Of a DNA stretch of 38,661 bases, positions 11,691 to 27,754 are shown piece by piece. The notes under the pieces are model-generated. The model was not told the DNA's origin, did no database searches, and saw only the letters and a list, made by a program, of their open reading frames with translations. Position numbers and translations under genes: made by a program. Origin of the DNA: Eubacteriales bacterium (GTDB taxonomy: Bacteria > Bacillota > Clostridia > Lachnospirales > Lachnospiraceae); NCBI GenBank assembly GCA_030536755.1, contig JAUNPJ010000034.1, forward strand, positions 1 to 38,661. The letters are read 5' to 3'. The stretch's first letter is position 1. The number at the start of each line of letters is the position of its first letter.

Positions 11691-12416
11691 TTATTTTGAC
11701 GCTATATACAGATTCCGCGCCAGTGTCTCAATGATATAGATGACAGGGAGCTGAGTCGTTATATTCACGTTATTTATGATTAATTCCGGTACATGGTATG
11801 TGATATTGCAGTCGGCCATTTTAGCGAGGGTGGAGTTTGAGGTATTTGTAATGGCGATTAATTTGCACCCCCGTTCTTTGAGCTGGTGAGCGATATCTAT
11901 CGTCTGCATAGTGGTGCCGGATTCCGAGAGCGCGATAGCAACTGTCTTTTCAGACAGATTTTGCAGAACCGGCTGCCAGGGATCCTCGACATAAAGACTG
12001 AAGCGTCCTATGTTGGAAAAGAACCTGGCTCCATATTTCCCCAATGTTCCAGAGGAACCAATGCCTACAAATATAATTTGTCTGGAGGTATTTAAGATGC
12101 CTGACGCTTCAGCAATGGTCTTCCGGAAATCATCGGATTCCGTGCGGTAAATAAAATTTTTCAACACAACATCATCGGCATCCTTGAGCATGATGTTTTC
12201 TTGCTGCAAAGACTCCTTGTAGCGCAGCTTAAAGTGGGTGTATCCTTCGAATCCCATTTTTTTGCAGAAGCGCAAAACGGTGCTGGTAGAAACATGGGCA
12301 GCCTCCGCCAGGTCCTTGATGGTCATGTACGAGATATTCTCTTTATTCTTCAGAATGCAGTTATAGATGGATAATTCTAATTCGTTGAAATCTGCCAGTA
12401 CTTCATTTGTGAACAT
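11691..12416 (-). CDS. RpiR/MurR-family transcriptional regulator
   Basis: The 241-residue product has an N-terminal RpiR-type helix-turn-helix (~1-75; IKDLAEAAHVSTSTVLRFCKKMGFEGY) and a C-terminal SIS sugar-isomerase-like domain (~100-235; FVGIGSSGTLGKYGARFF, ALSESGTTMQT, AITNTSNSTLAKMA), which usually senses a phosphosugar. The ATG at 12416 follows GAGGGGCG; an upstream ATG at 12446 lacks a site. It is divergent from a second, paralogous regulator at 12618 and has its own strong promoter. Its target is not certain; the beta-glucoside PTS operon across the divergent region is the obvious candidate. Confidence 0.9.
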   Translation of the reverse strand: MFTNEVLADFNELELSIYNCILKNKENISYMTIKDLAEAAHVSTSTVLRFCKKMGFEGYTHFKLRYKESLQQENIMLKDADDVVLKNFIYRTESDDFRKTIAEASGILNTSRQIIFVGIGSSGTLGKYGARFFSNIGRFSLYVEDPWQPVLQNLSEKTVAIALSESGTTMQTIDIAHQLKERGCKLIAITNTSNSTLAKMADCNITYHVPELIINNVNITTQLPVIYIIETLARNLYIASK

Positions 12417-12466
12417 GTATTCGCCCCTCTTTCCTGTAAAAAACAATTCAGAATGGTTTTACCTAG

Positions 12467-12547: not shown

Positions 12548-12578
12548 TATCTTTCATGTGGTCTTTAAGGGCATAGTC

Positions 12579-12587
12579 TGGTATACT
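12579..12587 (+). promoter_or_regulatory. Extended -10 promoter of the forward RpiR gene
   Basis: TGGTATACT is an extended -10 (TG at 12579-12580, TATACT at 12582-12587) ~30 bases before the start codon. The -35 is weak (TGGTCT). Confidence 0.55.
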
Positions 12588-12617
12588 GTACAAAAAGGAA
12601 TAGGTAGGTGGAGAGGC

Positions 12618-13415
12618 ATGGAATTATTTCAGCAGGAACAATTGCGTAGCCTGAATGAAGGCGAGTTTGCCGTTTACAATTATGTGTCCGGGCATATATA
12701 TGAAGTGGTAAAGATGAATATAAGGGAACTGTCTGCGGCAACAGGGGTATCTACCACTACGATTCTGCGTTTTTGCAGCAAAACAGGCTGTGACGGATAT
12801 AAAGACTTCAAATACAGGCTCAGCAAGGCTCTGGAAAAACAAAAAGAGCCAAAGTTGTATTTTCCGTCTATACTGCCTGCGATACAGTATTTGGAACATA
12901 TGAGGGATAATCATGAATTTGAGACGCAGGCGGATGTATGCACTGATTTGTGCATGCAGGCCAGGCAGGTATTATTCGTAGGAATCGGAACCAGCGGAAA
13001 ACTGGGCGAATACGGTGCCCGTCTTCTGTCGGGAGTGGGGATAATGGCTTTTGCCGTCACGGATCCCTATTACTCCCTGGAAATGAACAGAGCGAATATG
13101 AAGGATACCGTGGTCATTGTCCTATCGGTTTCAGGAGAGACCCCCCAGGTAATTTCCCTGGTGGATGAATTTAGGAAAAGGCAGGCAAAAGTGATCAGTA
13201 TCACAAATACGAACCAGTGTACCATTGCGAAAATGTCGGAAATAAACTTTCCATACTACATGCCCGTCGCCTATGTCTGCCAGGAAAACAGGTCTGTCAA
13301 TTTGACGACACAAATTCCTGTATTGCATTTACTGGAAACACTAATGTATAAAATATATCTGATAAAGCAGACAGATTGCGGTTCAAAACAGGATATTCGG
13401 ACAAAGAAGCGGTAA
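12618..13415 (+). CDS. RpiR/MurR-family transcriptional regulator of the PTS operon
   Basis: The 265-residue product has an N-terminal helix-turn-helix (IRELSAATGVSTTTILRFCSKTGCDGYKDFK, ~30-60) and a C-terminal SIS domain (FVGIGTSGKLGEYGARLL, VLSVSGETPQ, SITNTNQCTIAKMSE), so it probably binds a phosphorylated sugar. It is clearly paralogous to the divergent regulator at 11691. Because it lies directly upstream and co-directional with the 6-phospho-beta-glucosidase/PTS operon, control of that operon is likely. The ATG at 12618 follows GGTGGAGAGGC. A terminator whose stem begins inside the last codons separates it from the operon, which has its own promoter. Confidence 0.9.
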   Translation: MELFQQEQLRSLNEGEFAVYNYVSGHIYEVVKMNIRELSAATGVSTTTILRFCSKTGCDGYKDFKYRLSKALEKQKEPKLYFPSILPAIQYLEHMRDNHEFETQADVCTDLCMQARQVLFVGIGTSGKLGEYGARLLSGVGIMAFAVTDPYYSLEMNRANMKDTVVIVLSVSGETPQVISLVDEFRKRQAKVISITNTNQCTIAKMSEINFPYYMPVAYVCQENRSVNLTTQIPVLHLLETLMYKIYLIKQTDCGSKQDIRTKKR

Positions 13416-13585: not shown

Positions 13586-15028
<1,443 letters not shown>

Positions 15029-15071: not shown

Positions 15072-15380
15072 ATGATTATTCGTTTATTTTGTGCGGCAGG
15101 TATGTCAACGAGTTTATTGGTTTCCAAAATGCAGGAGGCGGCAAAGGAAAAGGGAAAGGACGCAGATATTGCGGCATATCCGATTACGGAACTGGAGCGT
15201 ATGGTAGACCAGATCGATGTGGCACTGTTGGGGCCTCAGGTAGGCTTTCAGCTGGGAAAAGCAAAAGCCATCTGCGAGCCGAAAGGTGTTCCGGTTGATG
15301 TAATCCCCATGGCCGATTATGGAATGTGCAATGGGATGAATGTGCTGAAGTTTGCATATAAGCTGGCAAAAAATAAGTAA
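15072..15380 (+). CDS. PTS lactose/cellobiose-family EIIB
   Basis: The 102-residue soluble domain begins MIIRLFCAAGMSTSLLV, the EIIB phosphate-loop motif with the phosphocysteine at Cys7. It accepts phosphate from EIIA and passes it to the sugar during transport by EIIC. Length is standard for a free EIIB of the cellobiose type. AGGAGGA precedes the ATG. It lies between the glycosidase and EIIC genes, and together with EIIA at 16768 it completes the permease. Confidence 0.95.
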   Translation: MIIRLFCAAGMSTSLLVSKMQEAAKEKGKDADIAAYPITELERMVDQIDVALLGPQVGFQLGKAKAICEPKGVPVDVIPMADYGMCNGMNVLKFAYKLAKNK

Positions 15381-15407: not shown

Positions 15408-16721
15408 ATGAATAAGTTCATAAATGAAAAAATAATCCCGAAAGTGATGGCGTTTATCAATACCAAAGGGATAATGGCTTTGAAAGATGGCATGGTCTAT
15501 TCGATGCCGTTGCTGATTATCGGTTCAATTTTTCTGATTCTGGCAAATTTTCCGGTGCAGGCGGTTGCGAATGTGCTGTCTGCCAGCGGAATTACGGGTC
15601 TGCTGAACCAGGCCTATGGCGCGACGTTCAATATAAGCGCCATGATTGCGGTTATGGGCATCGCTTACAATTATGCAAAACTGGAAAATCAGGAACCCAT
15701 GAGCGGCGGTATCATCGCTTTGGCAGTCTTTTTGATTTTTCAACCCTCTACCATTGAAACGGCAGGCGGTGATGTAGTTGGGAACATCATCAACAAAGAC
15801 TGGACAGCAGGAAAGGGGATGATTGGTGCGATCATCGTTGGACTGCTTGTGGGATTTGCCTATTCATGGTTCTTAAAGAAAAATATCCGTATTAAGTTGC
15901 CGGCAGGTGTTCCCGCAGGTGTGGCAAATGCGTTTTCCGCTTTGATTCCCGCCGCCGTAATTGTGAGTGTGGCAACGATTGTCCAGGGGATATTTACACT
16001 GGGGCTTCATACCACCGTAATAGAAACAATATATAAAGTCATCCAGACGCCGATGCAGGGAATGACCGATTCTTTGCCGGGCGCAATATTAATGTGTTTT
16101 ATGTTTCCGTTTTTGTGGCTTTTCGGCGTGCATGGCTCCACGGTCGTGGGCGGAATCATGCAGGGGCTTTTACAGGCGAATAGCTTAGAGAATCAGGCCA
16201 TTCTTGACGCAGGAAAAGCATTGACCGTTGCCAACGGCGGACATATCGTGACAGTGCAGTTTGTGGATCAGTTTATCAATGTGACAGGTGCGGGGCTTAC
16301 GATTGGATTGGTTTTCTATATGGTTGTATTTGCGAAATCAAAGCAGTTAAGGACGCTTGGACGGTTGGAAGCAGTACCGGCGCTGTTCAATATCAATGAG
16401 CCACTTTTGTTCGGTATTCCGGTTGTAATGAATCCCATGCTTGCGATTCCGTTTATTGCGACCCCGGTTGTGGCCTGCATCATACAGTATTTTGCATTGG
16501 CAACAGGTCTTTGCCCGTTATATGGGGCGACTCAGGTTCCGTGGACCTGTCCGCCCATTATATCAGGATTTCTGGTTGGAGGTTGGAGAAGCGCACTGCT
16601 TCAGGTCATTATTTTCACGGTTTCGTTTTTTATCTATCTTCCCTTTATCAAAAGAGTGGATAAAGCAAACCTGAAAGCAGAATCAGAGGCAACCCAGGAA
16701 GAGGACGATGAAGATTGGTAG
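15408..16721 (+). CDS. PTS lactose/cellobiose-family EIIC permease
   Basis: The 437-residue, highly hydrophobic protein has about ten membrane segments and is the sugar-translocating subunit. Family motifs are seen: MALKDGMVYSMPLLIIGS near the start, the substrate-site region LFGVHGSTVVGGIMQ, and FNINEPLLFGIPVVMNP towards the C-terminus, with its conserved NEP containing the active Glu. The tail is acidic (EEDDEDW). GGGAGGA lies ~11 bases before the ATG at 15408. EIIC of this family usually serves beta-glucosides or chitobiose; the linked GH1 enzyme favours beta-glucosides. Confidence 0.95.
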   Translation: MNKFINEKIIPKVMAFINTKGIMALKDGMVYSMPLLIIGSIFLILANFPVQAVANVLSASGITGLLNQAYGATFNISAMIAVMGIAYNYAKLENQEPMSGGIIALAVFLIFQPSTIETAGGDVVGNIINKDWTAGKGMIGAIIVGLLVGFAYSWFLKKNIRIKLPAGVPAGVANAFSALIPAAVIVSVATIVQGIFTLGLHTTVIETIYKVIQTPMQGMTDSLPGAILMCFMFPFLWLFGVHGSTVVGGIMQGLLQANSLENQAILDAGKALTVANGGHIVTVQFVDQFINVTGAGLTIGLVFYMVVFAKSKQLRTLGRLEAVPALFNINEPLLFGIPVVMNPMLAIPFIATPVVACIIQYFALATGLCPLYGATQVPWTCPPIISGFLVGGWRSALLQVIIFTVSFFIYLPFIKRVDKANLKAESEATQEEDDEDW

Positions 16722-16767: not shown

Positions 16768-17088
16768 ATGAGTGAAGAAATGATCACAGCATGTTTTCAG
16801 TTGATTACATATGTAGGGACAGCCAGATCATGCTATATCAATGCAATTCAGTGTGCAAAGGAAGGAAAATTTGACGAAGCTGCAGAGTCCTTGAAGATGG
16901 GGGACGAGGCATTTGCTCAGGGACACGACGGACATTCCGATCTGCTGGCGAAAGAGGCAAACGGAGAATTGTCAGAGACGGGCATTTTATTGATCCATGC
17001 AGAGGATCAATTGATGAGTGCAGAGGGATTCCGGATTATTGCAGAAGAGTTTATCGCCGTATACAAAACACTCTCTGAAGGAAGATAA
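16768..17088 (+). CDS. PTS lactose/cellobiose-family EIIA
   Basis: The 106-residue helical protein fits the EIIA of the lactose/cellobiose family, which works as a trimer and takes phosphate from HPr. The phosphoacceptor is His77 in LLIHAEDQLMSAE, and the family's Asp (Asp80 here, in HAED) is kept. Helix motifs such as SCYINAIQCAKEGKFDEA match the family pattern. It has a good GGAGAC-type site and lies 46 bases after EIIC. With the EIIB and EIIC genes it completes the transporter. Confidence 0.94.
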   Translation: MSEEMITACFQLITYVGTARSCYINAIQCAKEGKFDEAAESLKMGDEAFAQGHDGHSDLLAKEANGELSETGILLIHAEDQLMSAEGFRIIAEEFIAVYKTLSEGR

Positions 17089-17133: not shown

Positions 17134-17391
17134 ATGAAGACATTCGAATACACGATTCAGGATTCGCTGGGAATTCATGCCAGACCGGCAGGTGCGCTGG
17201 CGAAAGAGGCAAAGAAATATGAGAGTAAGATTGTGATAGGAAAAGAAGGAAAAACAGCAGAAGCCACAAAATTGATGGCGCTTATGGGACTTGGTGTAAA
17301 ATGCGGCCAGAAAGTGGAGATTGAGATTTCCGGTTCGGACGAGGAAGCGGCATTCCAGGGGATAAAGGCTTTTTTTGAGGCGAATTTATAG
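17134..17391 (+). CDS. HPr phosphocarrier with catalytic His15 but Lys at position 46
   Basis: The 85-residue product is an HPr that carries phosphate from EI to EIIA. The active-site motif GIHARPAG (His15, Arg17) is intact. The regulatory site is not: aligning GKTAEATKLMALMGLGV with the Bacillus HPr region ending KSIMGVMSLG puts Lys46 where HPr kinase would phosphorylate Ser46. So this HPr should do transport but should not be switched off by HprK or act as a CcpA co-repressor. AGGAGG precedes the ATG. The symbol ptsH is withheld because a housekeeping HPr probably exists elsewhere. Confidence 0.93.
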   Translation: MKTFEYTIQDSLGIHARPAGALAKEAKKYESKIVIGKEGKTAEATKLMALMGLGVKCGQKVEIEISGSDEEAAFQGIKAFFEANL

Positions 17392-17402
17392 AAATGACAG
17401 CT

Positions 17403-17427
17403 ATGACCAGGTGTATTGCCTGGTCAT
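17403..17427 (+). other. Intercistronic hairpin between the HPr and pyrophosphatase genes
   Basis: ATGACCAGG (17403-17411) and CCTGGTCAT (17419-17427) form a perfect 9-bp stem with a 7-base loop. No T run follows, so it is more likely an mRNA processing, stability or translation-control element than a terminator. Confidence 0.6.
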
Positions 17428-17449
17428 ATCCAAATATGGAGGTAATGTT

Positions 17450-17986
17450 ATGAATATATGGCATGATATCAGTGCGGACAGGATATACCCCACGGATTTT
17501 GTCTCTGTCATTGAAATAGCAAAAGGGAGCAATAAGAAATATGAATTGGACAAAGAGACGGGGATGCTGCTCTTAGATAGGATTTTATTTACAGCCACGC
17601 ATTATCCGATGAATTACGGGTTCATCCCAAGAACCTATGGGGATGATAAAGATCCGTTAGATGTACTGGTGCTTTGCTCTGAGGCAATTGAGCCAATGAC
17701 GCTTGTAAGGAGCTACCCAATCGGGGTAATGAAAATGGAGGACGGCGGCATGGGTGATGAGAAAATTATTGCCATCCCATACGGGGATCCTACATATATG
17801 GGGTATACGGATATCAGTGAGCTGCCGAAGCATATTTTTGATGAATTGAAGCACTTTTTTTCCATATATAAGCATCTGGAAGGAAAGGATACTAAAGTAA
17901 ATGAATTTGGCAGTGCGATTGAGGCGGTGGGTATCATAGAGAAGTGCATGGAAAATTATGAGAGTAAGTTTGGGAAAGGAGCATGA
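17450..17986 (+). CDS. Inorganic pyrophosphatase, family I
   Basis: The 178-residue product matches soluble family I pyrophosphatases, which hydrolyse PPi to two phosphates with Mg2+. The signature YGDDKDPLDVLVL holds the catalytic acidic cluster (Asp66, Asp68, Asp71), and upstream PMNYGFIPRTYG gives the conserved Tyr/Gly segment. Further acidic residues lie in MGDEKIIAIP. Length is typical (~175). The ATG at 17450 follows TGGAGG by 8 bases. It is embedded between HPr and EI, 3 bases before EI, which is an unusual place for this housekeeping enzyme. A link to PEP supply through PPi-forming pyruvate phosphate dikinase is possible but not shown. Confidence 0.92.
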   Translation: MNIWHDISADRIYPTDFVSVIEIAKGSNKKYELDKETGMLLLDRILFTATHYPMNYGFIPRTYGDDKDPLDVLVLCSEAIEPMTLVRSYPIGVMKMEDGGMGDEKIIAIPYGDPTYMGYTDISELPKHIFDELKHFFSIYKHLEGKDTKVNEFGSAIEAVGIIEKCMENYESKFGKGA

Positions 17987-17989
17987 ATC

Positions 17990-19672
17990 ATGTTAAGGCT
18001 GTCAGGAAAATCAGTATATAAGGGTATCGCCCTCGGGCCGGTGGTGGTATTAAAGCCGCATGACCAGCAGATAAAAAGGGAAACGGTGGAGGATGCCGAT
18101 GGAGAGATTTTCAGGCTTGGGAGGGCAGGGGCACAGGCTCGAAGCCAGCTTCAGGAGTTATATGATAAGGCAGTGAAAGAGGTGGGAAAGGCAGGGGCGG
18201 CAATTTTTGAAGTTCACCAGATGTTGCTGGAAGATGAAGACTATCTGGAAGCAATCCATAATATGATTCGCACGGAACTGGTAAATGCCGAATACGCCGT
18301 GGCTGTTACAGGTGACAACTTTGCGGAAATGTTTGGCAATATGGATGACGACTATATGAAAGCAAGGGCTGCAGACATAAAGGATATTTCCAATCGGTTA
18401 GTCAGAAATCTGACCGGGGATGAGGAGATAGATTTTGCATCCATGGAACCGGCAATTATCGTAGCCAACGATTTGAGTCCAAGCGAAACGGTACAGATGG
18501 ATAAGGAAAAAATCCTTGGCTTTGTGACCGTACACGGCTCAACCAATTCGCATACGGCCATTCTTGCACGGATGATGAATATTCCCGCTCTGATAGGTGT
18601 TCCTATGGAACTGGATAAGATCCATACAGGAATGACGGCCATTGTAGATGGTTTCAATGGAAAAGCTGTTTTTGAACCTACAGAGGAACTTTGCCGTGAA
18701 GCGCAAATGCGTATGCGGGAGGAAGAAGAAAAGCGGCAGTTGCTGAAGAACTTAAAGGGGAAAAAGAATGTAACTCTGGATGGACGGGAAATCAATATTT
18801 ACGCAAATATCGGGAATGTGGGAGATATTGGGTACGCGCTAGAGAATGATGCGGGCGGCATCGGATTGTTCCGCAGTGAATTTCTGTATATTGGAAAAAT
18901 AGATTTTCCCACGGAAGAAGAACAGTTCCAGGCATATAAAAAAGTCGTGCAGAATATGGCGGGAAAGAAAGTGATCATCCGCACTCTGGATATAGGTGCG
19001 GATAAGCAGGCAGATTATTTTGACCTGGGAAAAGAAGAGAATCCGGCACTTGGCTACCGCGCGATCCGCATCTGCCTGAAGCAGAAAAGTATTTTTAAGA
19101 CACAGTTGCGGGCTTTGTTTCGCGCCGCAGTGTTTGGTGACATGTCCATTATGTATCCTATGATTATATCTACACAGGAGGTTTTGCAGATATACAGGAT
19201 TGTGGATGAAGTGGAAGCCGAACTTGCAAAGGAAGGGGTTCCTTATAAGGTTCCGGAGCAGGGAATCATGATTGAAACCCCGGCGGCGGTCATGATCAGT
19301 GAGGAACTGGCGCAGATGGTGGATTTCTTCAGCATTGGAACCAACGACCTCACGCAATACACACTGGCAATAGACCGCCAGAACGCAAAGCTGGATGATT
19401 TTTATAATCCCCATCACACCGCCATATTGAGGATGATTCAGATTGTAGTCGACAGCGCACACAAATATGGAAAATGGGCAGGCATTTGCGGTGAACTGGG
19501 GGCGGATCCGGAGCTGACAGAAAAATTCGTCCGTATGGGCGTGGATGAATTGTCGGTTTCTCCCTCTATGATACTTAAGCTGCGGAAAATTGTCAGAGAG
19601 ATGTATGTTTCCTCGGATAAAGGGCAGATGGGGAAAGGGCAGACAATAAATAAGGAAACAGAGGAGGATTGA
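17990..19672 (+). CDS. ptsI: PTS enzyme I (phosphoenolpyruvate-protein phosphotransferase)
   Basis: The 560-residue enzyme takes phosphate from PEP and passes it to HPr. The N-terminal HPr-binding and phosphohistidine domains contain GSTNSHTAILARMMNIPA with the active His188. The C-terminal PEP-binding TIM barrel contains GIGLFRSEFLYIG, RTLDIGADKQ, GTNDLTQYTLAIDRQN and the catalytic Cys500 in AGICGELG. Length and spacing match E. coli EI (His189, Cys502). It starts 3 bases after the pyrophosphatase stop with AAAGGAG at good distance. Finding EI in a sugar-specific operon rather than only with the general ptsHI genes is uncommon. Confidence 0.95.
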   Translation: MLRLSGKSVYKGIALGPVVVLKPHDQQIKRETVEDADGEIFRLGRAGAQARSQLQELYDKAVKEVGKAGAAIFEVHQMLLEDEDYLEAIHNMIRTELVNAEYAVAVTGDNFAEMFGNMDDDYMKARAADIKDISNRLVRNLTGDEEIDFASMEPAIIVANDLSPSETVQMDKEKILGFVTVHGSTNSHTAILARMMNIPALIGVPMELDKIHTGMTAIVDGFNGKAVFEPTEELCREAQMRMREEEEKRQLLKNLKGKKNVTLDGREINIYANIGNVGDIGYALENDAGGIGLFRSEFLYIGKIDFPTEEEQFQAYKKVVQNMAGKKVIIRTLDIGADKQADYFDLGKEENPALGYRAIRICLKQKSIFKTQLRALFRAAVFGDMSIMYPMIISTQEVLQIYRIVDEVEAELAKEGVPYKVPEQGIMIETPAAVMISEELAQMVDFFSIGTNDLTQYTLAIDRQNAKLDDFYNPHHTAILRMIQIVVDSAHKYGKWAGICGELGADPELTEKFVRMGVDELSVSPSMILKLRKIVREMYVSSDKGQMGKGQTINKETEED

Positions 19673-19674
19673 CT

Positions 19675-19902
19675 GTGAAAATAATGAATATTTACCTTCA
19701 TTCTGTTAAGGATGTCACAGAATTTGTAAATGAAATAAGTAAAGTCGAAGGAGCTGCAACTATCTATGCAGGACGGTATATTATTAATGCCAAATCGATT
19801 ATGGGTATCTTTAGTTTGGATTTGTCAGAACCTTTGAAGCTGGAGATTGAGAACTGGAAGGAAGAATATGCACCAAGGCTTGAGAAATACCTGGCTGAAT
19901 AA
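19675..19902 (+). CDS. HPr-like (Crh-like) protein with the Ser46 motif but no catalytic His
   Basis: The 75-residue product has an HPr-like C-terminal half, INAKSIMGIFSLDLSEPLKLEI, in which Ser41 aligns with the HprK-phosphorylated Ser46 of HPr. The HARPA motif is absent: Ser10 aligns with His15 and Lys12 with Arg17. It therefore cannot be an ordinary phosphocarrier and resembles Bacillus Crh in logic, a Ser-only regulatory form. Proteins of this general type, annotated as HPr family, are known in Clostridia. The GTG at 19675 sits 7 bases after AGGAGG. It is the last gene of the operon and overlaps nothing; a strong terminator follows ~120 bases on. Confidence 0.85.
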   Translation: MKIMNIYLHSVKDVTEFVNEISKVEGAATIYAGRYIINAKSIMGIFSLDLSEPLKLEIENWKEEYAPRLEKYLAE

Positions 19903-20025: not shown

Positions 20026-20085
20026 GACGAAACAAAAACGCCAGAAAGCAGGTAAAGCTGTCTGGCGTTTTTGTTTCGTCGATTT
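20026..20085 (+). terminator. Terminator of the PTS operon (20-bp perfect stem)
   Basis: Arms 20026-20045 and 20061-20080 are perfect inverted repeats of 20 bases around a 15-base loop, followed by GATTTTT. The upper stem contains its own A/T tract (CAAAAACG/CGTTTTTG). Confidence 0.85.
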
Positions 20086-20378
20086 TTCGTAAATATTGAC
20101 GACTGGCGTCTGAATATGAACTGTATCTTCTAATGGCAGCTTTAAAAACAGATCTTGTAATGCAAAAAAATCTGCGTTGCAAGGTCTTATTTTTAATAAA
20201 ATGACAAATATTGTACAATGAGAAATACAAAAATATATATGAATTGACGAAAAATACCAAAAAATACAATTTTTGTTTATGAAAAAATACGCTGTTTTGC
20301 CACGCGATATGATATACTTATGGTACATTACGCCAAATTATGGCGAAAAAAAGGAAAAAGGAAAGAAAGGAGAAGGCA
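20086..20378 (+). other. Leader region before the Mrp/Mbh operon, with a second hairpin
   Basis: This gap holds a hairpin at 20150-20187 (AGATCTTGTAATGC with GCGTTGCAAGGTCT, G-U pairs included) followed by TATTTTTAAT, which looks like an intrinsic terminator and may be an attenuator or a back-up terminator. Further on are -10-like TATACT (20313-20318) without a clear -35, a small palindrome CGCCA-AATTA-TGGCG (20331-20345) and the AAAGGAG site of the first antiporter gene. No convincing gene is seen. Confidence 0.5.
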
Positions 20379-20843
20379 ATGTATCTGTTATATTTTTTGC
20401 TCTGGGTTATTTTTAACGGGAATTTCACGCTGGAAATCTGTCTTTTGGGCATTGTGATTGCAGGGGGGATTTTTGCATTTACATGTAAGTTTATGGATTA
20501 CAGTGTGGAAAAAGAAAAGCAGAATATCCGAAGGATATTAAAATTTATCCGGTATTGCTGCGTACTGGTCAAAGAAATCGTCAAAGCAAATTTTGCAGTC
20601 ATGCACATGATTCTCTCAGAAAAAGAAGAAGTGGAGCCGGCTCTCGTGAGTTTCCATTCTGATATGGAGACTGCTGTGGGGAAGGCTATGGTGGCCAATG
20701 CGATCACTCTGACCCCGGGAACGATTACCGTATCTTTGGAGGATTCTGAGTATGTGGTGCACTGTCTGGATGATGATCTGGCAGTAGGAATGGCTGATTC
20801 CATATTTGTGAAGCTGATTTCGGATATGGAAAAAAGCAAATGA
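20379..20843 (+). CDS. mnhE: Mrp/Mbh antiporter subunit E (MnhE/MbhA type)
   Basis: The 154-residue protein has two N-terminal membrane segments (MYLLYFLLWVIFNGNFTLE and the following IVIAGGIFAF) and a C-terminal cytoplasmic part with the family motif ANAITLTPGTITVSLEDSEYVVHCLDD. This is the MnhE family, the small accessory subunit of multisubunit Na+/H+ antiporters and of the antiporter module of Mbh hydrogenases. AAAGGAG lies 6-7 bases before the ATG at 20379; an upstream in-frame ATG (20340) has no site. It opens a ten-gene operon in the order E-F-G-D'-E'B-C followed by four large subunits. Confidence 0.93.
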   Translation: MYLLYFLLWVIFNGNFTLEICLLGIVIAGGIFAFTCKFMDYSVEKEKQNIRRILKFIRYCCVLVKEIVKANFAVMHMILSEKEEVEPALVSFHSDMETAVGKAMVANAITLTPGTITVSLEDSEYVVHCLDDDLAVGMADSIFVKLISDMEKSK

Positions 20844-20881
20844 TGATAGTAGAAACTATATGGTAGAAAGGAAAAACAGCT

Positions 20882-21220
20882 ATGGAAAATATCTCAACTG
20901 CTCTTGAAAAACCTTATCATGTGCTTTTTGCTGCAGCATTGATTTTTCTGGCTATTATGGTTGTACTGTGCCTGGTTCGTGCAATCATCGGACCGAAAGT
21001 TGCAGACCGCATTGTTGCCACCAATATGATGGGAACAATGATCATGGTCATGATCGCTATTCTGGCATTGATGCTTGAGGAGGGATATCTCGTGGATATC
21101 TGTCTGATCTATGCCATGATCAGTTTTCTGGCAGTGGTCTGTCTGACGAAGGTTTACATGGGGGTATATCAGGAACGGAAAATGAAAAAAAAGGAGAAGG
21201 AAAGAAATGATATGGATTGA
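20882..21220 (+). CDS. mnhF: Mrp/Mbh antiporter subunit F (MnhF/MbhB type)
   Basis: The 112-residue protein has three membrane helices. The motif CLVRAIIGPKVADRIVATNMMGT in and after the first helix is the MnhF hallmark (RxxxGPxxxDRxxAxN). EEGYLVDICLIYAMISFLA marks the third helix. It is a structural subunit of the cation/proton antiporter complex. The C-terminus is strongly basic and charged (KMKKKEKERN) and overlaps mnhG by 14 bases, indicating translational coupling. Confidence 0.92.
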   Translation: MENISTALEKPYHVLFAAALIFLAIMVVLCLVRAIIGPKVADRIVATNMMGTMIMVMIAILALMLEEGYLVDICLIYAMISFLAVVCLTKVYMGVYQERKMKKKEKERNDMD

Positions 21221-21590
21221 ATGGGGGCGCTTTCTCATCGGAGCAGCATGTCTGCTGTTTGGATTGGGGATTTTTGCGATTGAAATGGCAGGCGTTTTCC
21301 GGTTTCGCTATGTGCTCAACCGGATGCATGCGGCTGCTATGGGGGATACACTTGGAATCGGCTTTTCACTTTTGGGGCTGATGATCATGAGTGGATGGAA
21401 TTTTACGACTTTGAAGCTTTTTCTGGTTATTTTATTTTTGTGGTTTTCTTCACCAGTGTCTTCACATCTGATTGCGCGTCTGGAAGTGACGACCAATGAA
21501 GACAAAGAAAAACAGTATCGCGTGATAAAGCTGGATGAACTGGAGAAAGAAAAACAGGAAGCAGTTTTGGAAAAGGAGGATGTGTCGTAG
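21207..21590 (+). CDS. mnhG: Mrp/Mbh antiporter subunit G (MnhG/MbhC type)
   Basis: The 127-residue protein has three membrane helices with the MnhG motifs GIFAIEMAGVFRFRYVLNRMHAAAMGDTLGIGF (pattern GxxRxxDxxxRxHAxxxxxTLG, varied) and FLWFSSPVSSHLIAR. It is a small subunit of the antiporter complex. The C-terminal ~40 residues are charged and probably cytoplasmic. AAGGAG in the end of mnhF serves as the ribosome binding site. The next gene starts one base after its stop. Confidence 0.92.
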   Translation: MIWIEWGRFLIGAACLLFGLGIFAIEMAGVFRFRYVLNRMHAAAMGDTLGIGFSLLGLMIMSGWNFTTLKLFLVILFLWFSSPVSSHLIARLEVTTNEDKEKQYRVIKLDELEKEKQEAVLEKEDVS

Positions 21591-21591
21591 T

Positions 21592-21855
21592 ATGCAGGTG
21601 TTTACATATATTTTGTTGGGCTTTCTCGTAATCTGCGCAATTTCTGTAAGCTTTTCCAGAAATCTTCTGAATTCAATTTTAATTTTTATGTCTTACAGCC
21701 TTGTGATGTCTGTAATCTGGATTCTTCTGGAATCCCCTGATCTGGCAATTACAGAGGCGGCGGTAGGCGCAGGAGTCACGAGTATTTTATTTTTTATTAC
21801 ACTGAAAAAGATTCATGCCATCATGAAAACGGAAGAGGAGGAAGAACATGAGTAA
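21592..21855 (+). CDS. MbhD-type subunit (DUF4040; free equivalent of part of the MrpA C-terminus)
   Basis: The 87-residue protein has three predicted membrane helices and the signature LESPDLAITEAAVGAGVTSILF, characteristic of MbhD/DUF4040. In classical Mrp antiporters this domain is fused to the C-terminal end of MrpA; here, as in Mbh hydrogenases, it is a separate protein. The ATG at 21592 follows the mnhG stop directly, with AAGGAGG ~13 bases upstream. The end is acidic (KTEEEEEHE) and overlaps the next gene by 8 bases. Confidence 0.88.
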   Translation: MQVFTYILLGFLVICAISVSFSRNLLNSILIFMSYSLVMSVIWILLESPDLAITEAAVGAGVTSILFFITLKKIHAIMKTEEEEEHE

Positions 21856-22822
21856 AAAAGTACCGCAAAAAGATTATGAACGTACTCTTTCTTATCACCT
21901 CAAACAATGGCTGGATGGATCAAAGGAACTTCTTCTGGACAATGTGGAAATGAAACCTCAGAAACCATTCGAGGAGGACAGAGAAATTCTCATTGAGAGA
22001 AAAAAAGAGGAACAGCAGCGTTTGGAAAAAGTGTATGATTTCGGGCGCAATCGGGAAGTGCGCCTTTTCAGAAAAGCGTATCGGGTATTCAGCGTGCTGT
22101 TCTGCCTGTTTCTGGTCACGATGCTTCTGGTTGCGGTGTCAAATTTGCCGAGTTTTGGAAACCCTTCCAATCCGGTAAATAATGAGGTATCAGAGCGCTA
22201 CATTGAAAACGGTCTGCAGGAGACGGGGGCTGTAAACATTGTAACGGGAATGATTCTGGATTACAGAGCGTTTGATACTCTGGGGGAATCGCATGTGCTT
22301 TTTATCGCAACGTGTACCGTTTTGATTCTCCTTCGTATTGACGGTGACAAAAAAGGACGCAGCGGCATGGGCTATGAAAAGGAGGAAGACCGTATTTATG
22401 AGCCGAAAAATGATGTCATTCTGCAGACGGCTGCCAGATTTTTGGTGCCGCCGATTTTTATTTTCGGTATTTATGTTGTGCTGTGCGGACATCTGGGGCC
22501 GGGCGGCGGCTTTTCGGGCGGAGCGATCATAGGGGCAGGACTCATTCTGTATCTGAATGCCTTCGGCTTTGAGAAGACAGAACGTTTCTTTACCCAGAAA
22601 ACGTATCAGCGTTCCAGCTTTTGTGCCCTGGCATGTTATGCTCTGGCGAAAAGCTACTCTTTTTTTACCGGTGCCAATCACATCGAAAGCGTGATTCCCA
22701 AAGGAACACCGGGAGCGGTTTTGAGCAGCGGTCTGATTCTGATTCTCAATATCTGTGTAGGAATCGTGGTAGCAGGAACGATGTATACGTTTTATGTTAT
22801 GTTCCGGAAAGGAGACTATTGA
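21848..22822 (+). CDS. Fused MbhE-MnhB antiporter subunit
   Basis: The 324-residue protein joins two normally separate parts. Residues ~1-75 form a charged cytoplasmic extension of no known family. Residues ~75-165 contain an MbhE-type domain (GAVNIVTGMILDYRAFDTLGE). Residues ~190-320 are an MnhB/MbhF domain with the signature GHLGPGGGFSGGAIIGAGLILYLN. In Mrp systems the MbhE part ends MrpA and MrpB follows, so the fusion keeps the natural order. About six membrane helices are visible. The start overlaps the previous gene by 8 bases. The long charged N-terminus is the odd feature. Confidence 0.87.
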   Translation: MSKKVPQKDYERTLSYHLKQWLDGSKELLLDNVEMKPQKPFEEDREILIERKKEEQQRLEKVYDFGRNREVRLFRKAYRVFSVLFCLFLVTMLLVAVSNLPSFGNPSNPVNNEVSERYIENGLQETGAVNIVTGMILDYRAFDTLGESHVLFIATCTVLILLRIDGDKKGRSGMGYEKEEDRIYEPKNDVILQTAARFLVPPIFIFGIYVVLCGHLGPGGGFSGGAIIGAGLILYLNAFGFEKTERFFTQKTYQRSSFCALACYALAKSYSFFTGANHIESVIPKGTPGAVLSSGLILILNICVGIVVAGTMYTFYVMFRKGDY

Positions 22823-22823
22823 T

Positions 22824-23201
22824 ATGAATCTTGCAAATCTTTTCAACAATTATGGGGAAGCGGTTGCAATGATCCTTTTTGGAATCGGTTTTTCCAATCT
22901 GCTTTTGCAGAAAAATCTGATTAAGAAAATCATCGGTCTGAATATTATGGATACGGCCATGTACCTGTTTCTGGCATTAAAAGGATATGTGGAGGGGCGC
23001 AAAGCGCCAATTGTGACAAATGGCGTGCAAACGATGGAGGCGTATATCAATCCGATTCCCAGTGGTCTGGTGCTGACGGGAATTGTTGTTTCTGTATCTG
23101 TAACAGCGCTGATGCTTGCGCTGACCATTCGCCTTTACCGGAGATATCATACGCTGAATCTTGATGAGATTTCTACATTGCTGAAGAAGGAGGGATTGTG
23201 A
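22824..23201 (+). CDS. mnhC: Mrp/Mbh antiporter subunit C (MnhC/MbhG, NuoK-like)
   Basis: The 125-residue protein has three membrane helices and the NuoK/MnhC pattern: GFSNLLLQKNLIKKIIGLNIMDTAMYLF with a conserved Asn, then INPIPSGLVLTGIVVSVSVTALMLAL (the DPLPQALVLTAIVI-type motif). NuoK-like subunits line the ion path next to the antiporter-like subunits. The ATG at 22824 follows GAAAGGAGA and starts one base after the previous stop; its own stop overlaps the next ATG by one base. Confidence 0.93.
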   Translation: MNLANLFNNYGEAVAMILFGIGFSNLLLQKNLIKKIIGLNIMDTAMYLFLALKGYVEGRKAPIVTNGVQTMEAYINPIPSGLVLTGIVVSVSVTALMLALTIRLYRRYHTLNLDEISTLLKKEGL

Positions 23202-24709
23202 TGCAGTTTGTACAGAATTTTCCGTTTATCACGATTATCCTGTCGCTGTTTTCCGGACCGCTTTGTGCCATTTTAGATGGGAAAAAAGCAAAACGAATTC
23301 ATCAGGCAGTGATTTGTATAATCATGGTGATGTCCTGCGCGGTGCTGGCGTTTGTGATGCAGTCCGGGACTTCCTATGTATATATGATGGGGCATTTTCC
23401 TGCACCCTGGGGAAATGAAATCCGTGTGGGTGTACTGGAAGCGTTTATGGCTGTCTTTTTCTGTATCATTATGCTTCTGTGCATGATGGGCGGCGTGTAT
23501 GAAAGAGAGCAGAAGCTTGAAGATACGAAGCAGAATCTTTACTATGTTCTGGTGAATCTGCTTTTATCTTCTCTGCTGGCATTGATCTATACCAATGACC
23601 TTTTTAACGCATATGTTTTTGTGGAAATTAACACGATTTCCGCATGTGGTTTGATTATGATCAAACAGAATGGGCGCACGCTTGAGGCTGCGACCAGATA
23701 TATGATTATGAGTTTGATGGGTTCTGGTCTTTTGCTCCTGGGTATCTGTTTTATCTATGATCTGACAGGGCATCTTTTGATGAGCAATATCAAAGAACAG
23801 GTACAGATTCTTCATCAGACAGGCATGTATCATATTCCGCTTCTGGTTGCTCTGGGATTGATGGCGGTGGGACTGGCTATCAAAAGTGCACTGTTTCCGT
23901 TCCATTCCTGGCTTCCGGATGCTTACGGATATTCCACCGTGTCTTCTGCGGCAATCTTGTCTTCGCTGGTTTCCAAAGGATACGTTTTTCTGCTGGTAAA
24001 AATTTTCTTCCGTGTCATTGGATTTGACATTGTCCGTGACAGTAAAATCATTAACGTTTTATTTGTTTTTGGTATTGCCGGTATGATTATGGGCTCTGTC
24101 AGCGCGATACAGGAAAACAATATCAGGAGAATGATTGCCTATTCTTCTGTTGCACAGATCGGATATATTTATATGGGCTTCGGACTTGGAAATACGGCGG
24201 GCGTGATTGCGAGCCTTTACCATATTCTGTCCCATGCGGCGACAAAAGCTTTGTTATTTGTGGCGGCTTCCGGAATTACGGATGCTTCTGACAATCACAC
24301 AGACTTTTTTAAACTGACAGGTGCAGGTTATCGGAATAAACTGGCAGGGATTGCTTTTACGGCAGGTTCTCTGTCTATGATTGGCATTCCCATGTTTTGC
24401 GGCTTTATCTCCAAACTTTTGTTTGCGCAGGCCGGTATGGACAATACATACAAAATGTTTCCGACGCTGATTGCATTGGCGATCAGTACGATTTTGAACG
24501 CTGTTTATTTCATGAAAACGGTCATTCGTATTTATACTCCGGTTTCCAGGAAAGAAATTCAGAAAAATGGATATCGAAATATTTCCATGAAGGAGCAGCC
24601 GGTTAAGTCCGTGGCATTGGTGTTCTTTATCCTTTTGAATCTGATTTTGGGACTTTGTTCCGAACCGATCGTTGCGGCACTGCAAAACGGCCTTGGAATG
24701 TTTGCTTAA
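23201..24709 (+). CDS. mnhD: Antiporter-like proton/cation pump subunit 1 (MnhD/MbhH type)
   Basis: The 502-residue protein with ~14 membrane helices belongs to the NuoL/M/N-MrpA/D family. Functionally key residues are present: Glu142 in FVEIN (helix 5), Lys in AIKSALFPFHSWLPDAY (helix 7), Lys in SKGYVFLLVK (helix 8) and Lys in FISKLLFAQAG (helix 12). Its position right after mnhC is that of canonical MnhD. It is the first of four such large subunits. Start ATG 23201, with AAGGAGGG upstream. Confidence 0.92.
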   Translation: MQFVQNFPFITIILSLFSGPLCAILDGKKAKRIHQAVICIIMVMSCAVLAFVMQSGTSYVYMMGHFPAPWGNEIRVGVLEAFMAVFFCIIMLLCMMGGVYEREQKLEDTKQNLYYVLVNLLLSSLLALIYTNDLFNAYVFVEINTISACGLIMIKQNGRTLEAATRYMIMSLMGSGLLLLGICFIYDLTGHLLMSNIKEQVQILHQTGMYHIPLLVALGLMAVGLAIKSALFPFHSWLPDAYGYSTVSSAAILSSLVSKGYVFLLVKIFFRVIGFDIVRDSKIINVLFVFGIAGMIMGSVSAIQENNIRRMIAYSSVAQIGYIYMGFGLGNTAGVIASLYHILSHAATKALLFVAASGITDASDNHTDFFKLTGAGYRNKLAGIAFTAGSLSMIGIPMFCGFISKLLFAQAGMDNTYKMFPTLIALAISTILNAVYFMKTVIRIYTPVSRKEIQKNGYRNISMKEQPVKSVALVFFILLNLILGLCSEPIVAALQNGLGMFA

Positions 24710-24734
24710 GATGTTTACATAGGAGGAAAAGAAC

Positions 24735-26246
24735 GTGAATAGTTGGATTTTAGTGCCGGTGTTTCTGCCGGTGATAGCCGGGATTTTTCTGCTGGTGGCT
24801 GCATTTCGCAAGCATCCGGAAAATGTGCAGATCAGTCCCGGGGAACGTCATCGCCTTCATCTGATTGCAGGGAGCGTGCTGCTGATATCGGCAGTTCTCG
24901 CGGTGGCGGCAGTCTGGACAGGCGAAAAAAGTTTGACCTTGTTTTATCTTATGGAAGAAATTCCTATTTATTTTCATATTGACGGCATAAGCAGGATTTT
25001 TGTGACATTTACAAGTATCGTCTGGTTGTGCGCGGGCAGTTACGCTTTTATTTATATTCAGCATGAGGGAAAAGAAACCGGCTTTTTTGGTTTTTATCTT
25101 TTAGTATATGGTGTCGTGCTGGCACTGGATTTTTCCGGAAATCTTGTGACCATGTATTTCTTTTATGAACTGATGACGCTGACTTCTGCGCCGATGGTGC
25201 TGCATCATGGTTCCAAAGGAGCGATGATCGGAACTTTGAAATACCTGTTTTATTCGCTTTGCGGTGCATATATGGGACTGTTTGGAATATTCTTCCTGTA
25301 TCGCTATTGTGATACACTCACCTTTACATCGGGTGGAACTTTGAATCTTACTGCAGCCCAGGATCATCGAACCATTCTTCTGATTGCAGTATTTGTGATG
25401 CTTGTGGGATTCGGGGCAAAGGCCGGTATGTTTCCGCTGCATTCCTGGCTTCCGGCTGCCCATCCGGTGGCACCGTCCCCCATATCAGCCGTGTTTTCGG
25501 GCATTCTTGTAAAAGGCGGTGTTCTTGCGGTAATCCGTACGGTTTACTATATTGTGGGACCGGACTTTATCAGGGGGACATGGGTACAGACGGCTTGGAT
25601 CGTGCTGACGCTTCTTACGGTTTTTATGGGTTCCATGATGGCCTACCGGGAACAGGTGCTCAAAAGGAGACTGGCCTATTCGACCGTGAGCCAGGTTTCC
25701 TATATTTTGTTCGGATTAGCACTGCTGACCCCGACCGGAATGACGGGCGCGCTTTTGCACACCGTCTTTCATGCATTTATCAAAGCGACGCTGTTTCTCA
25801 GTGCTGGTGTGTTCATTCTGGAAGAAAACAAATCAAGAGTTGATCAGTTGGCGGGTATTGGAAAATGTATGCCGAAAACGCTGATGTGTTATACCTTTGC
25901 ATCGCTGGCGCTGATCGGAATTCCACCGGCCAGCGGTTTTATCAGCAAATGGTATCTGGCGCAGGGCGCAATGCAGGCAGAAGTGGGCGTATTTCGATGG
26001 CTTGGCCCGGTTGTACTTTTGATCAGTGCGCTTTTGACGGCAGGATATTTGCTGCCTGTCACGATGAGAGGATTTTTCCCGGGTAAGAATGCAGGAGAAG
26101 AGCAGCAGGAAACGGTTGTAAATGAGGAGCCGCCGGGATTCATGCTGGTTCCGATGATCATCCTTGCCGCTTTGACCATCATCCTTGGGGTTTTGCCGAA
26201 TCCGCTGACGAAGTATATCGTTCAGTTGGTTTCCGGATTGATGTAG
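24735..26246 (+). CDS. Antiporter-like proton/cation pump subunit 2 (NuoL/M/N family)
   Basis: The 503-residue membrane protein again has ~14 helices and intact ion-path residues: Glu145 in YFFYELMTL, Lys in FGAKAGMFPLHSWLPAAHP, Lys in GILVKGGVLAVIR and Lys in GFISKWYLAQGA. The HPVAPSPISA segment is the classic broken-helix motif of the family. It starts with GTG after AGGAGG, 25 bases after subunit 1. It is a diverged paralogue, not a recent copy. Whether it corresponds to MrpA, to a second MrpD, or to NuoM/N cannot be told from the sequence alone. Confidence 0.92.
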   Translation: MNSWILVPVFLPVIAGIFLLVAAFRKHPENVQISPGERHRLHLIAGSVLLISAVLAVAAVWTGEKSLTLFYLMEEIPIYFHIDGISRIFVTFTSIVWLCAGSYAFIYIQHEGKETGFFGFYLLVYGVVLALDFSGNLVTMYFFYELMTLTSAPMVLHHGSKGAMIGTLKYLFYSLCGAYMGLFGIFFLYRYCDTLTFTSGGTLNLTAAQDHRTILLIAVFVMLVGFGAKAGMFPLHSWLPAAHPVAPSPISAVFSGILVKGGVLAVIRTVYYIVGPDFIRGTWVQTAWIVLTLLTVFMGSMMAYREQVLKRRLAYSTVSQVSYILFGLALLTPTGMTGALLHTVFHAFIKATLFLSAGVFILEENKSRVDQLAGIGKCMPKTLMCYTFASLALIGIPPASGFISKWYLAQGAMQAEVGVFRWLGPVVLLISALLTAGYLLPVTMRGFFPGKNAGEEQQETVVNEEPPGFMLVPMIILAALTIILGVLPNPLTKYIVQLVSGLM

Positions 26247-26262
26247 AAAGGGGGAAGTAAAA

Positions 26263-27738
26263 ATGAATTCTGTGATTATGGTTGTTGTCGTTTTGCTCCC
26301 CATTCTCCTGGGAATGCCGATTCCGCTGCTTCCTTTTAAAAATCGAAACCAAATGGCGGTTTATGTGGAGAGTGTGACGCTGGTTACTTCTGTGCTGGTG
26401 TGGATGATGCTTTTTGCTCAACCACAGGAGGCGTTTGTTCTGTTTCGTTTTACGGGAAATTTAAGTGTCAGCTTCCGACTCGATGGACTTGGGACTGTGT
26501 TTGCCGGAATCGTATCAGCGCTGTGGCCGCTTGCCACGCTGTATTCGTTTGAATATATGAAACATGAAAAGCATGAAACGTATTTCTTTATGTTTTATGT
26601 GGTTACGTACGGAGTGACGCTTGGAATTGCACTGGCGGAGGATCTTGTGGCGATGTATTTCTTCTATGAAATGCTCAGTCTGGTGACGCTGCCGCTGATT
26701 ATGCATACGCTGACGAGAGAGGCGATTTTGGCCAGCCGAACTTACCTTTATTATTCTCTGGGCGGTGCGGCCTTTGCTTTTATCGGAATGGTTGCGATTT
26801 TGACATTCGGCACAACTTCCGTGTTTGTGCCGGGCGGTGTGATCGATCTTGCAAAGGTTGGAGATAAACAGAACTTTTTGCTGTTGATCTATGTGTTGTG
26901 TTTCTGTGGTTTCAGCGTGAAGGCGGCCATGTTCCCGTTTTCTGCATGGCTGCCGAAAGCCGGTGTGGCACCTACTCCCGTCACCGCACTGCTTCACGCC
27001 GTAGCCGTGGTAAAAGCGGGTGCTTTTACGGTCATCCGTGTGACGTACTACAGCTTTGGTACAGAATTTCTGCGGGGAACGTGGGCACAGACGATCGTGC
27101 TGGGACTGACGATTTTTACGATTGTATATGGATGCAGCAGAGCATTGAAGGAAACGCATTTGAAGCGGAGACTTGCCTGGTCTACCGTCAGCAATCTTTC
27201 TTATATTCTGTTTGGTGCAGCTCTGATGACACCGCTTGGGCTGGTGGGCGGTCTGAGTCATATGATTTTCCATGCAGTGATGAAAATCTGCGCGTTCTTC
27301 TGCGCCGGTGCTGTGATTTATAAGACCGGAAGGAACTACATTCATGAATTGAATGGATTCGGGCGCAAAATGCCGAAGGTATTTTTGATTTTCACCATTT
27401 CCGGATTGGCACTGATGGGTGTTCCGGGGCTTTGCGGTTTTATCAGCAAATGGAATCTTGCCAAAGCGGCGATCGAAAGTGAGAATCCTCTGGCTTATGT
27501 GGGAATTGTGTTCCTTTTGATCTCTGCGATTCTGACGGCAATTTATATGATGACCATTTCCATCCGGGCATTTTTCCCTGGCAAAGAGTTTGACTACAGC
27601 ACGATTTCCGATGTGGAAGACCCGAATTGGATGATGATTCTCCCTCTGGTGATTTTTGTGATTGCCATGTTTGTGTTTGGGTTATACTCAGAACCGGTAA
27701 TCGCAATGCTGGAATCCATCGCAGCGGTAATGAATTAG
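26263..27738 (+). CDS. Antiporter-like proton/cation pump subunit 3 (NuoL/M/N family)
   Basis: The 491-residue protein shares the same fold. Glu136 in YFFYEMLSL, Lys in FSVKAAMFPFSAWLPKAG, Lys in AVVKAGAFTVIR and Lys in GFISKWNLAKAA are kept, so it should be competent for ion translocation. The helix-7 motif reads PFSAWLP instead of PLHSWLP, so the conserved His there is replaced by Ser. It lies 16 bases after subunit 2, with AAAGGGGG before the ATG, and belongs to the same operon. Confidence 0.92.
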   Translation: MNSVIMVVVVLLPILLGMPIPLLPFKNRNQMAVYVESVTLVTSVLVWMMLFAQPQEAFVLFRFTGNLSVSFRLDGLGTVFAGIVSALWPLATLYSFEYMKHEKHETYFFMFYVVTYGVTLGIALAEDLVAMYFFYEMLSLVTLPLIMHTLTREAILASRTYLYYSLGGAAFAFIGMVAILTFGTTSVFVPGGVIDLAKVGDKQNFLLLIYVLCFCGFSVKAAMFPFSAWLPKAGVAPTPVTALLHAVAVVKAGAFTVIRVTYYSFGTEFLRGTWAQTIVLGLTIFTIVYGCSRALKETHLKRRLAWSTVSNLSYILFGAALMTPLGLVGGLSHMIFHAVMKICAFFCAGAVIYKTGRNYIHELNGFGRKMPKVFLIFTISGLALMGVPGLCGFISKWNLAKAAIESENPLAYVGIVFLLISAILTAIYMMTISIRAFFPGKEFDYSTISDVEDPNWMMILPLVIFVIAMFVFGLYSEPVIAMLESIAAVMN

Positions 27739-27754
27739 GAGAGGAGTTGAGAAA

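What the first reader, a model, noticed from the sequence alone, without database searches (positions are those of the whole stretch)
17134..19902. Complementary HPr pair in one operon: His15 without Ser46, and Ser46 without His15
The HPr at 17134-17391 keeps GIHARPAG but has Lys46 where HprK would phosphorylate Ser46. The HPr-like protein at 19675-19902 keeps KSIMGIFSLDL (Ser41 equals Ser46) but has Ser10 where the catalytic His should be. Transport and regulation, normally on one HPr, appear divided between two proteins of the same operon. In Bacillus, Crh is a Ser-only form but HPr keeps both sites. A plausible outcome is sugar uptake that escapes HprK inhibition, with a separate signal to CcpA.
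Basis: partly seen in the sequence, partly recalled or inferred. Interest (0 to 1): 0.78.

Follow-up and report, generated by a model that had tools for sequence, protein, structure and literature searches.

The report
Histidine-only and serine-only HPr proteins
A sugar-uptake operon carries one HPr protein that can pass on phosphate but lacks the usual kinase target, and a small relative that keeps only the kinase target; the split looks like a common habit of this bacterial family rather than a feature of this one operon.

Summary
The observation mostly holds. HPr (17134-17391) has GIHARPAG and Lys46; the last gene (19675-19902) keeps KSIMGIFSLDL (Ser41 = Ser46) and has no HPr histidine. Profile alignment shows the loop of residues 13-15 deleted, so Ser10 is not strictly the His15 position. 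The pair is one instance of a wider pattern. In 17 genomes of the family, 16 of 18 intact EI-linked HPrs lack Ser46 (2 keep it), while 40 of 40 short HPr-like proteins keep Ser. His15/non-Ser46 HPrs fall on one side of a branch (99/94). In 13 family genomes without detected EI no such HPr was found; in the 11 that are at least 90% complete all 13 full-length homologues lack His15 and keep Ser46, and 10 of 11 have HprK. So the two sites follow different partners. Against a strict split: the same genome has two HPrs with both residues, and four of the 17 genomes have only such His15 HPrs. The genome also has a Crh beside whiA. The window's short gene is a diverged copy; I found no other EI-linked one. 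HprK phosphorylation and any receiver are inferred. New variant of a known kind (HPr/Crh).

The parts
12558..13415 (+). RpiR-family regulator (HTH_6 + SIS) just upstream of the operon
   Evidence: Pfam; start codon not settled
13589..15028 (+). GH1 glycosidase, probably 6-phospho-beta-glucosidase or similar
   Evidence: Pfam Glyco_hydro_1 431 bits; substrate inferred
15072..15380 (+). PTS IIB, lactose/cellobiose type
   Evidence: Pfam
15408..16721 (+). PTS IIC
   Evidence: Pfam PTS_EIIC 203 bits; ATG start chosen
16768..17088 (+). PTS IIA, lactose/cellobiose type
   Evidence: Pfam
17134..17391 (+). HPr with His15 and Lys46
17402..17428 (+). stable hairpin between HPr and pyrophosphatase genes, no T-run on the + strand
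   Evidence: scan; RNA fold of 17385-17455 -22.1 kcal/mol, z -3.5
17450..17986 (+). inorganic pyrophosphatase
   Evidence: Pfam 197 bits on the longer frame 17375-17986; ATG start chosen behind GGAGG
17990..19672 (+). enzyme I (PtsI) with GSTNSHTAI active-site motif
   Evidence: Pfam and NCBIfam TIGR01417 587 bits; motif
19675..19902 (+). short HPr-like protein, Ser41 (= Ser46) in NAKSIMGIFSLDL, active-site loop deleted
20026..20080 (.). perfect 20-nt inverted repeat (20026-20045 / 20061-20080), likely terminator
   Evidence: read directly from the sequence; the scan, limited to loops of 3-8, did not list it

Best explanation
The Lys46 HPr is the operon's phosphocarrier: it takes phosphate from the co-encoded EI and gives it to the lactose/cellobiose-type IIA, and HprK cannot throttle it because the seryl site is gone. 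It belongs to a clade of HPrs, mostly EI-linked, that lack Ser46. The short protein is a diverged copy of a small HPr relative that is common in the class; its active-site loop is deleted and its Ser46-type helix kept. Its most likely activity is to be a seryl-phosphorylated signal (substrate of HprK), made only when the operon is on, that reports to a regulator or back to HprK. Shown: residues, clade, conservation of the serine, co-occurrence with EI and with HprK. Inferred: immunity of the HPr to HprK (about 0.9), function as phosphocarrier (about 0.9), Ser41 as HprK substrate (about 0.6), CcpA as receiver (about 0.3).
For: 16 of 18 intact EI-linked HPrs in 17 family genomes lack Ser46; they and their kin form one side of a branch, 26 against 82, 99/94. 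79 of 79 short proteins examined keep the Ser. HprK in the own genome and 16 of 16 relatives. In 13 genomes without detected EI: no His15/non-Ser46 HPr, a short protein in 13, HprK in 10 (10 of 11 at least 90% complete). In those at least 90% complete, 13 of 13 full-length homologues lack His15 and keep Ser46. hprK lies within 6 kb of a Crh-type gene in 16 of 27 genomes. HprK of this genome has both Pfam domains and a Walker A motif.
Against: Two HPrs of the same genome keep both sites. Four of 17 genomes (G073, G088, G102, G116) have EI but only both-site His15 HPrs, one of them EI-linked; a second Ser46 HPr is EI-linked in G121. In the class sample 4 of 6 EI-linked HPrs keep Ser46. One 90%-complete genome, G044, has a short protein but no HprK found. 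The window's short gene has no orthologue in two congeners, a long branch and lower G+C (0.36 against 0.42-0.47 for the other operon genes). No direct evidence of phosphorylation.
Confidence: 0.6

Rival explanations
1. The short proteins are not phosphorylated signals but binding partners or decoys: they occupy HprK, EI or a CcpA-like regulator through the conserved KSIMGxxSL helix and so tune its activity.
For: The whole helix motif, not only the Ser, is conserved (14 invariant columns of the ten-row alignment); the segment with Arg17 is lost; a short protein occurs in G044 where no HprK was found.
Against: The Ser itself is kept in 79 of 79, which binding alone need not require.
Confidence: 0.2
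2. The window's short gene is a decaying or neutral duplicate that merely lies behind ptsI; the pairing has no function.
For: No orthologue in two congeners; best identity about 55%; end branch 1.62 against a median of 0.18; G+C 0.36; no other EI-linked short gene seen when the listed places were compared.
Against: Open frame with a good ribosome site 2 nt behind ptsI and the complete KSIMGIFSLDL motif kept despite about 50% divergence elsewhere.
Confidence: 0.2
3. One reading: within this operon alone, transport and CcpA signalling are divided between exactly these two proteins.
For: Same transcription unit, complementary residues.
Against: The genome has a Crh, three other short proteins and two both-site HPrs that could all carry the signal; the congener G121 has the sister HPr with an EI, and no short gene was seen beside them in a stretch cut by the contig end; no cre-like site above chance.
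Confidence: 0.15

Closest known systems
Crh (catabolite repression HPr) of Bacillus and of clostridia
   Same: HPr relative without the catalytic His and with the HprK-type Ser; Crh-like proteins are described in Thermoanaerobacterium saccharolyticum and Clostridium cellulolyticum, the latter said to lack an HPr orthologue (passages of PMC3526391, and PMC3656788)
   Different: The short proteins lack the loop of residues 13-15, are shorter, and do not sit behind whiA; this genome has its own Crh there. The passages do not mention EI-linked HPrs without Ser46.
PTS HPr of Firmicutes (PtsH)
   Same: Fold family, GIHARP active site, linkage to EI
   Different: Lys46 in place of Ser46. In C. difficile the homologous Ser45 is phosphorylated (passage of PMC8730811). 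Solventogenic clostridia are described as having ptsH and ptsI apart (passage of PMC4706839).

Membership tests
HPr phosphocarrier (window 17134-17391) | PTS-HPr domain over the cut-off | tested here: met
   97 bits against 23; TIGR01003 87.5 against 47.9
HPr phosphocarrier (window 17134-17391) | His15 in GxHARP and a cognate EI | tested here: met
HprK-regulated HPr (window 17134-17391) | Ser46 | tested here: not met
   Lys46
HPr phosphocarrier (window 17134-17391) | EI-dependent phosphorylation | not testable with these tools
   needs purified proteins
Crh (window 19675-19902) | no catalytic His, Ser46 kept | tested here: met
Crh (window 19675-19902) | full-length HPr domain with the ARP segment; model score over cut-off | tested here: not met
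   PTS-HPr 21.5 bits against 23; NF010354/PRK13782, which I recall as the Crh model, 21 bits against 123 (the genome's whiA-linked Crh itself scores 97, also under 123); loop deleted
Crh (window 19675-19902) | position behind rapZ-whiA | tested here: not met
   The genome's Crh is there (C58); the window gene is behind ptsI
Crh (window 19675-19902) | phosphorylated by HprK and binds CcpA | not testable with these tools
   needs purified proteins
Short HPr-like family beside the MiaB-type gene | sequence similarity and the neighbour | tested here: inconclusive
   Best matches are of this type (up to 55% identity), but tree placement is unresolved and the window gene is not at that locus; the genome's C86 copy is. 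48 of 55 loci that I compared have the neighbour

The most novel reading that the evidence does not exclude
In this family of clostridia the sugar PTS has, as a rule, been uncoupled from HprK: a clade of His-only HPrs does transport, and HprK speaks mainly through dedicated seryl proteins (Crh and a class-wide family of loop-deleted short HPrs), one of which has been recruited into a PTS operon as an operon-specific reporter.
Probability: 0.33. Interest if true: 0.72.

Novelty: new variant of a known kind. Interest (0 to 1): 0.5.

Why it matters
The textbook Firmicute scheme puts uptake and repression on one HPr, so that HprK can throttle transport. If the pattern holds, a large clostridial family runs much of its transport on HPrs that HprK cannot touch, and catabolite repression needs other phosphoproteins. 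That bears on which sugars can be taken up together, names testable targets for repression, and gives a candidate function to a very common, unstudied small protein of Clostridia.

Tried and rejected
Rejected: that the pattern is special to this operon. Rejected: Ser10 as the exact His15 position. Rejected: an EI-linked short gene in G134:C3; the apparent neighbour is a weak match (49 bits) in a long frame that runs off the stretch, and I did not identify it. Led nowhere: structure prediction of the short protein, so the loop deletion rests on profile alignment. No cre-like site above chance (2 matches, one palindrome on both strands; 2.5 expected). PHROGs gave nothing. Literature: ten searches of an open-access library; in the titles and abstract starts that were listed I saw no description of EI-linked HPrs lacking Ser46 in this family or of the short family. 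Only passages were read, of PMC2405797, PMC3526391, PMC8730811, PMC3656788 and PMC4706839. The phylogenetic sign test for joint loss of EI and His15 has too few independent pairs to reach significance.

Rows dropped and limits: two fragments of one broken HPr gene (G121:C10, Lys46, EI-linked) are not among the 18. Proteins of 200 aa or more and pieces under 75 aa were left out of the tree (among them a fused 454-aa HPr, G078:C7, with Glu46, and a fused one in G140); G134_C9_16461 was also dropped. Six of 40 short proteins with scores of 60 bits or less were left out of the profile. EI linkage was scored only inside fetched stretches (flanks mostly 1.5-3 kb), so linked pairs may be missed. I chose the 16 genomes (14 of the 119 other genera, for completeness, plus two congeners) and the 55 loci. 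Very weak PF00381 matches were not all fetched or kept. Genomes 'without EI' means no PF05524 match at E <= 1e-8. The lists were cut ('more matches are not listed'); the comparison was made by eye.

Full report
WHAT IS THERE. On one strand the window carries an RpiR-type regulator, then GH1 glycosidase, lactose/cellobiose-type IIB, IIC and IIA, HPr, inorganic pyrophosphatase, enzyme I and a 75-residue HPr relative, with gaps of 2 to 58 nt from GH1 on. The last gene starts at GTG 19675 behind GAGGAGG. A perfect 20-nt inverted repeat (20026-20045 / 20061-20080, read) follows, and the next gene starts 437 nt on.

CHECK OF THE RESIDUES. The HPr has H15, R17 and K46 and aligns through both sites with solved HPrs. 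The short protein reads K40-S41-I42-M43-G44-I45-F46-S47-L48-D49-L50 and scores 21.5 bits on PTS-HPr, under the 23-bit cut-off. A profile of 34 short proteins matches a profile of 14 Crh-type proteins with 98.5% probability over 73 columns, with a three-residue deletion over positions 13-15. On that alignment the histidine is not replaced by Ser10; its loop is gone.

THE GENOME. Eleven PF00381 matches were found in the 3.84-Mb assembly (the weakest, C96, at E 0.17). Four are linked to four of its five EI genes, each with His15 and none with Ser46 (K, K, K, Q). One is a Crh behind rapZ and whiA with Glu15 and Ser46. Two, C62:24362 and C24:6357, keep both residues. Four are short: the window's, C86, C57 and C96, each with the Ser. 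HprK is present with both Pfam domains and a Walker A motif. The assembly is listed at 5.12% contamination, but the window's HPr is sister to one of a congener (100/97), which speaks for the window belonging to the organism.

THE FAMILY. The own genome and 16 others hold 18 intact EI-linked HPrs: 8 Lys46, 3 Arg, 3 Ala, 2 Gln, 2 Ser. All 40 short proteins there keep the Ser; with the further genomes 79 of 79. In a tree of 109 full-length proteins the 26 His15/non-Ser46 HPrs and one odd protein lie apart from the 82 Ser46 proteins (99/95); without the odd one they are one side of a branch, 26 against 82 (99/94). The tree is unrooted and has few columns. Residue 46 in the 17 genomes is K, R, A, Q or, in one fused protein, E, so the constant feature is the absence of Ser, with a lean to basic residues. 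Four of the 17 (G073, G088, G102, G116) have EI but only His15 HPrs that keep Ser46, EI-linked in G088; G121 has one EI-linked Ser46 HPr beside non-Ser46 ones. So the both-site type can evidently serve a PTS.

A NATURAL EXPERIMENT. A match to the short protein was found in 119 of 120 genera (a few matches are weak) and EI in 107 of 120. In the 13 without detected EI no His15/non-Ser46 HPr was found, and all 13 have a short protein. HprK was found in 10 of 13, and in 10 of the 11 at least 90% complete; the exception, G044, has only a short protein. In the genomes at least 90% complete, all 13 full-length homologues lack His15 and all keep Ser46. In the two incomplete ones, 2 of 3 have a His at that column, one of them outside a GxHxRP context. 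In the HLRP-type branch His15 is lost in 4 of 5 rows from EI-less genomes and 0 of 21 others, with 4 changes on the tree, while all five keep Ser46 (Fisher p 0.0003, not corrected for kinship; the phylogenetic sign test has too few pairs). hprK lies within 6 kb of a Crh-type gene in 16 of 27 genomes. His15 thus tracks EI, and the serine persists with HprK.

THE CLASS. In 24 other genomes drawn from the class (one of the same family) short proteins were found in 17; three of the other seven have no PF00381 match. Among HPrs under 200 aa six were EI-linked there: 2 lack Ser46 (G126, G145, both Arg) and 4 keep it (G122, G134, G140, G144). So the Ser46-less state is common but not universal outside the family. 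The commonest short type lies near a MiaB-type gene (Pfam UPF0004 plus radical SAM) in 48 of 55 loci that I compared. The window's copy matches this type best (up to 55% identity), with a long end branch and an unresolved place in the tree (1.62 against a median of 0.18); no closer match was found in two congeners or among the 20 loci. Comparing by eye the places listed (a cut list) with those, I found no other short gene within 10 kb of an EI. The nearest analogue is G088:C8, where a short gene follows an HPr with both residues.

MECHANISM. The Lys46 HPr should accept phosphate from EI and be immune to HprK, since the target residue is missing. Seryl phosphorylation of HPr hinders EI-dependent phosphorylation (recalled). 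The short protein, with no histidine in an HPr loop, should not be a phosphocarrier; its conserved serine helix is the face that HprK and CcpA use in HPr (recalled). Its most likely job is a seryl-phosphorylated signal; the receiver is unknown. The pyrophosphatase in the operon is suggestive because HprK dephosphorylates HPr by phosphorolysis that makes pyrophosphate (recalled); not tested.

KNOWN OR NEW. Crh as a Ser-only HPr is known, also in clostridia (passages of PMC3526391 and PMC3656788). Clostridial ptsH and ptsI are described as not contiguous and phylogenetically distinct (passage of PMC4706839, on solventogenic clostridia). C. difficile HPr is seryl-phosphorylated at the homologous site (passage of PMC8730811). 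In ten searches of an open-access library I saw no description, in what was listed, of the Ser46-less EI-linked clade or of the short family; subscription papers were not searchable. I rate it a new variant of a known kind.

Noticed in passing
window 17450-17986: An inorganic pyrophosphatase gene lies between HPr and EI; HprK phosphorolysis makes pyrophosphate (recalled), so the neighbourhood may be meaningful.
   Followed up: no
window 17402-17428: Strong hairpin between the HPr and pyrophosphatase genes (z -3.5 for 17385-17455) without a T-run on the + strand; perhaps an mRNA processing or stability element that separates HPr from EI expression.
   Followed up: partly
L019 4033-5733 (G000:C86) and 48 of 55 loci compared: The commonest short HPr-like gene lies near a MiaB-type methylthiotransferase gene across the class, often with a thiI gene as well (37 of 55); the reason is unknown.
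   Followed up: partly
G000 contigs C24, C47, C62, C89, C105: Five EI genes in one genome, four of them with their own HPr; the fifth (C47) is divergent (78 bits against 119-127) and lies beside an ABC-transporter gene cluster.
   Followed up: partly
window 11691-12446 (-) and 12558-13415 (+): Two divergent RpiR-family regulators stand upstream of the operon.
   Followed up: no
L122 3358-3894: A frame beginning MCIRDRY at a contig end looks like a known adapter artefact (recalled) in the congener's assembly.
   Followed up: no
window 20340-29827: An Mrp-type multisubunit antiporter operon follows the PTS operon; assigned only by reading the translations.
   Followed up: no
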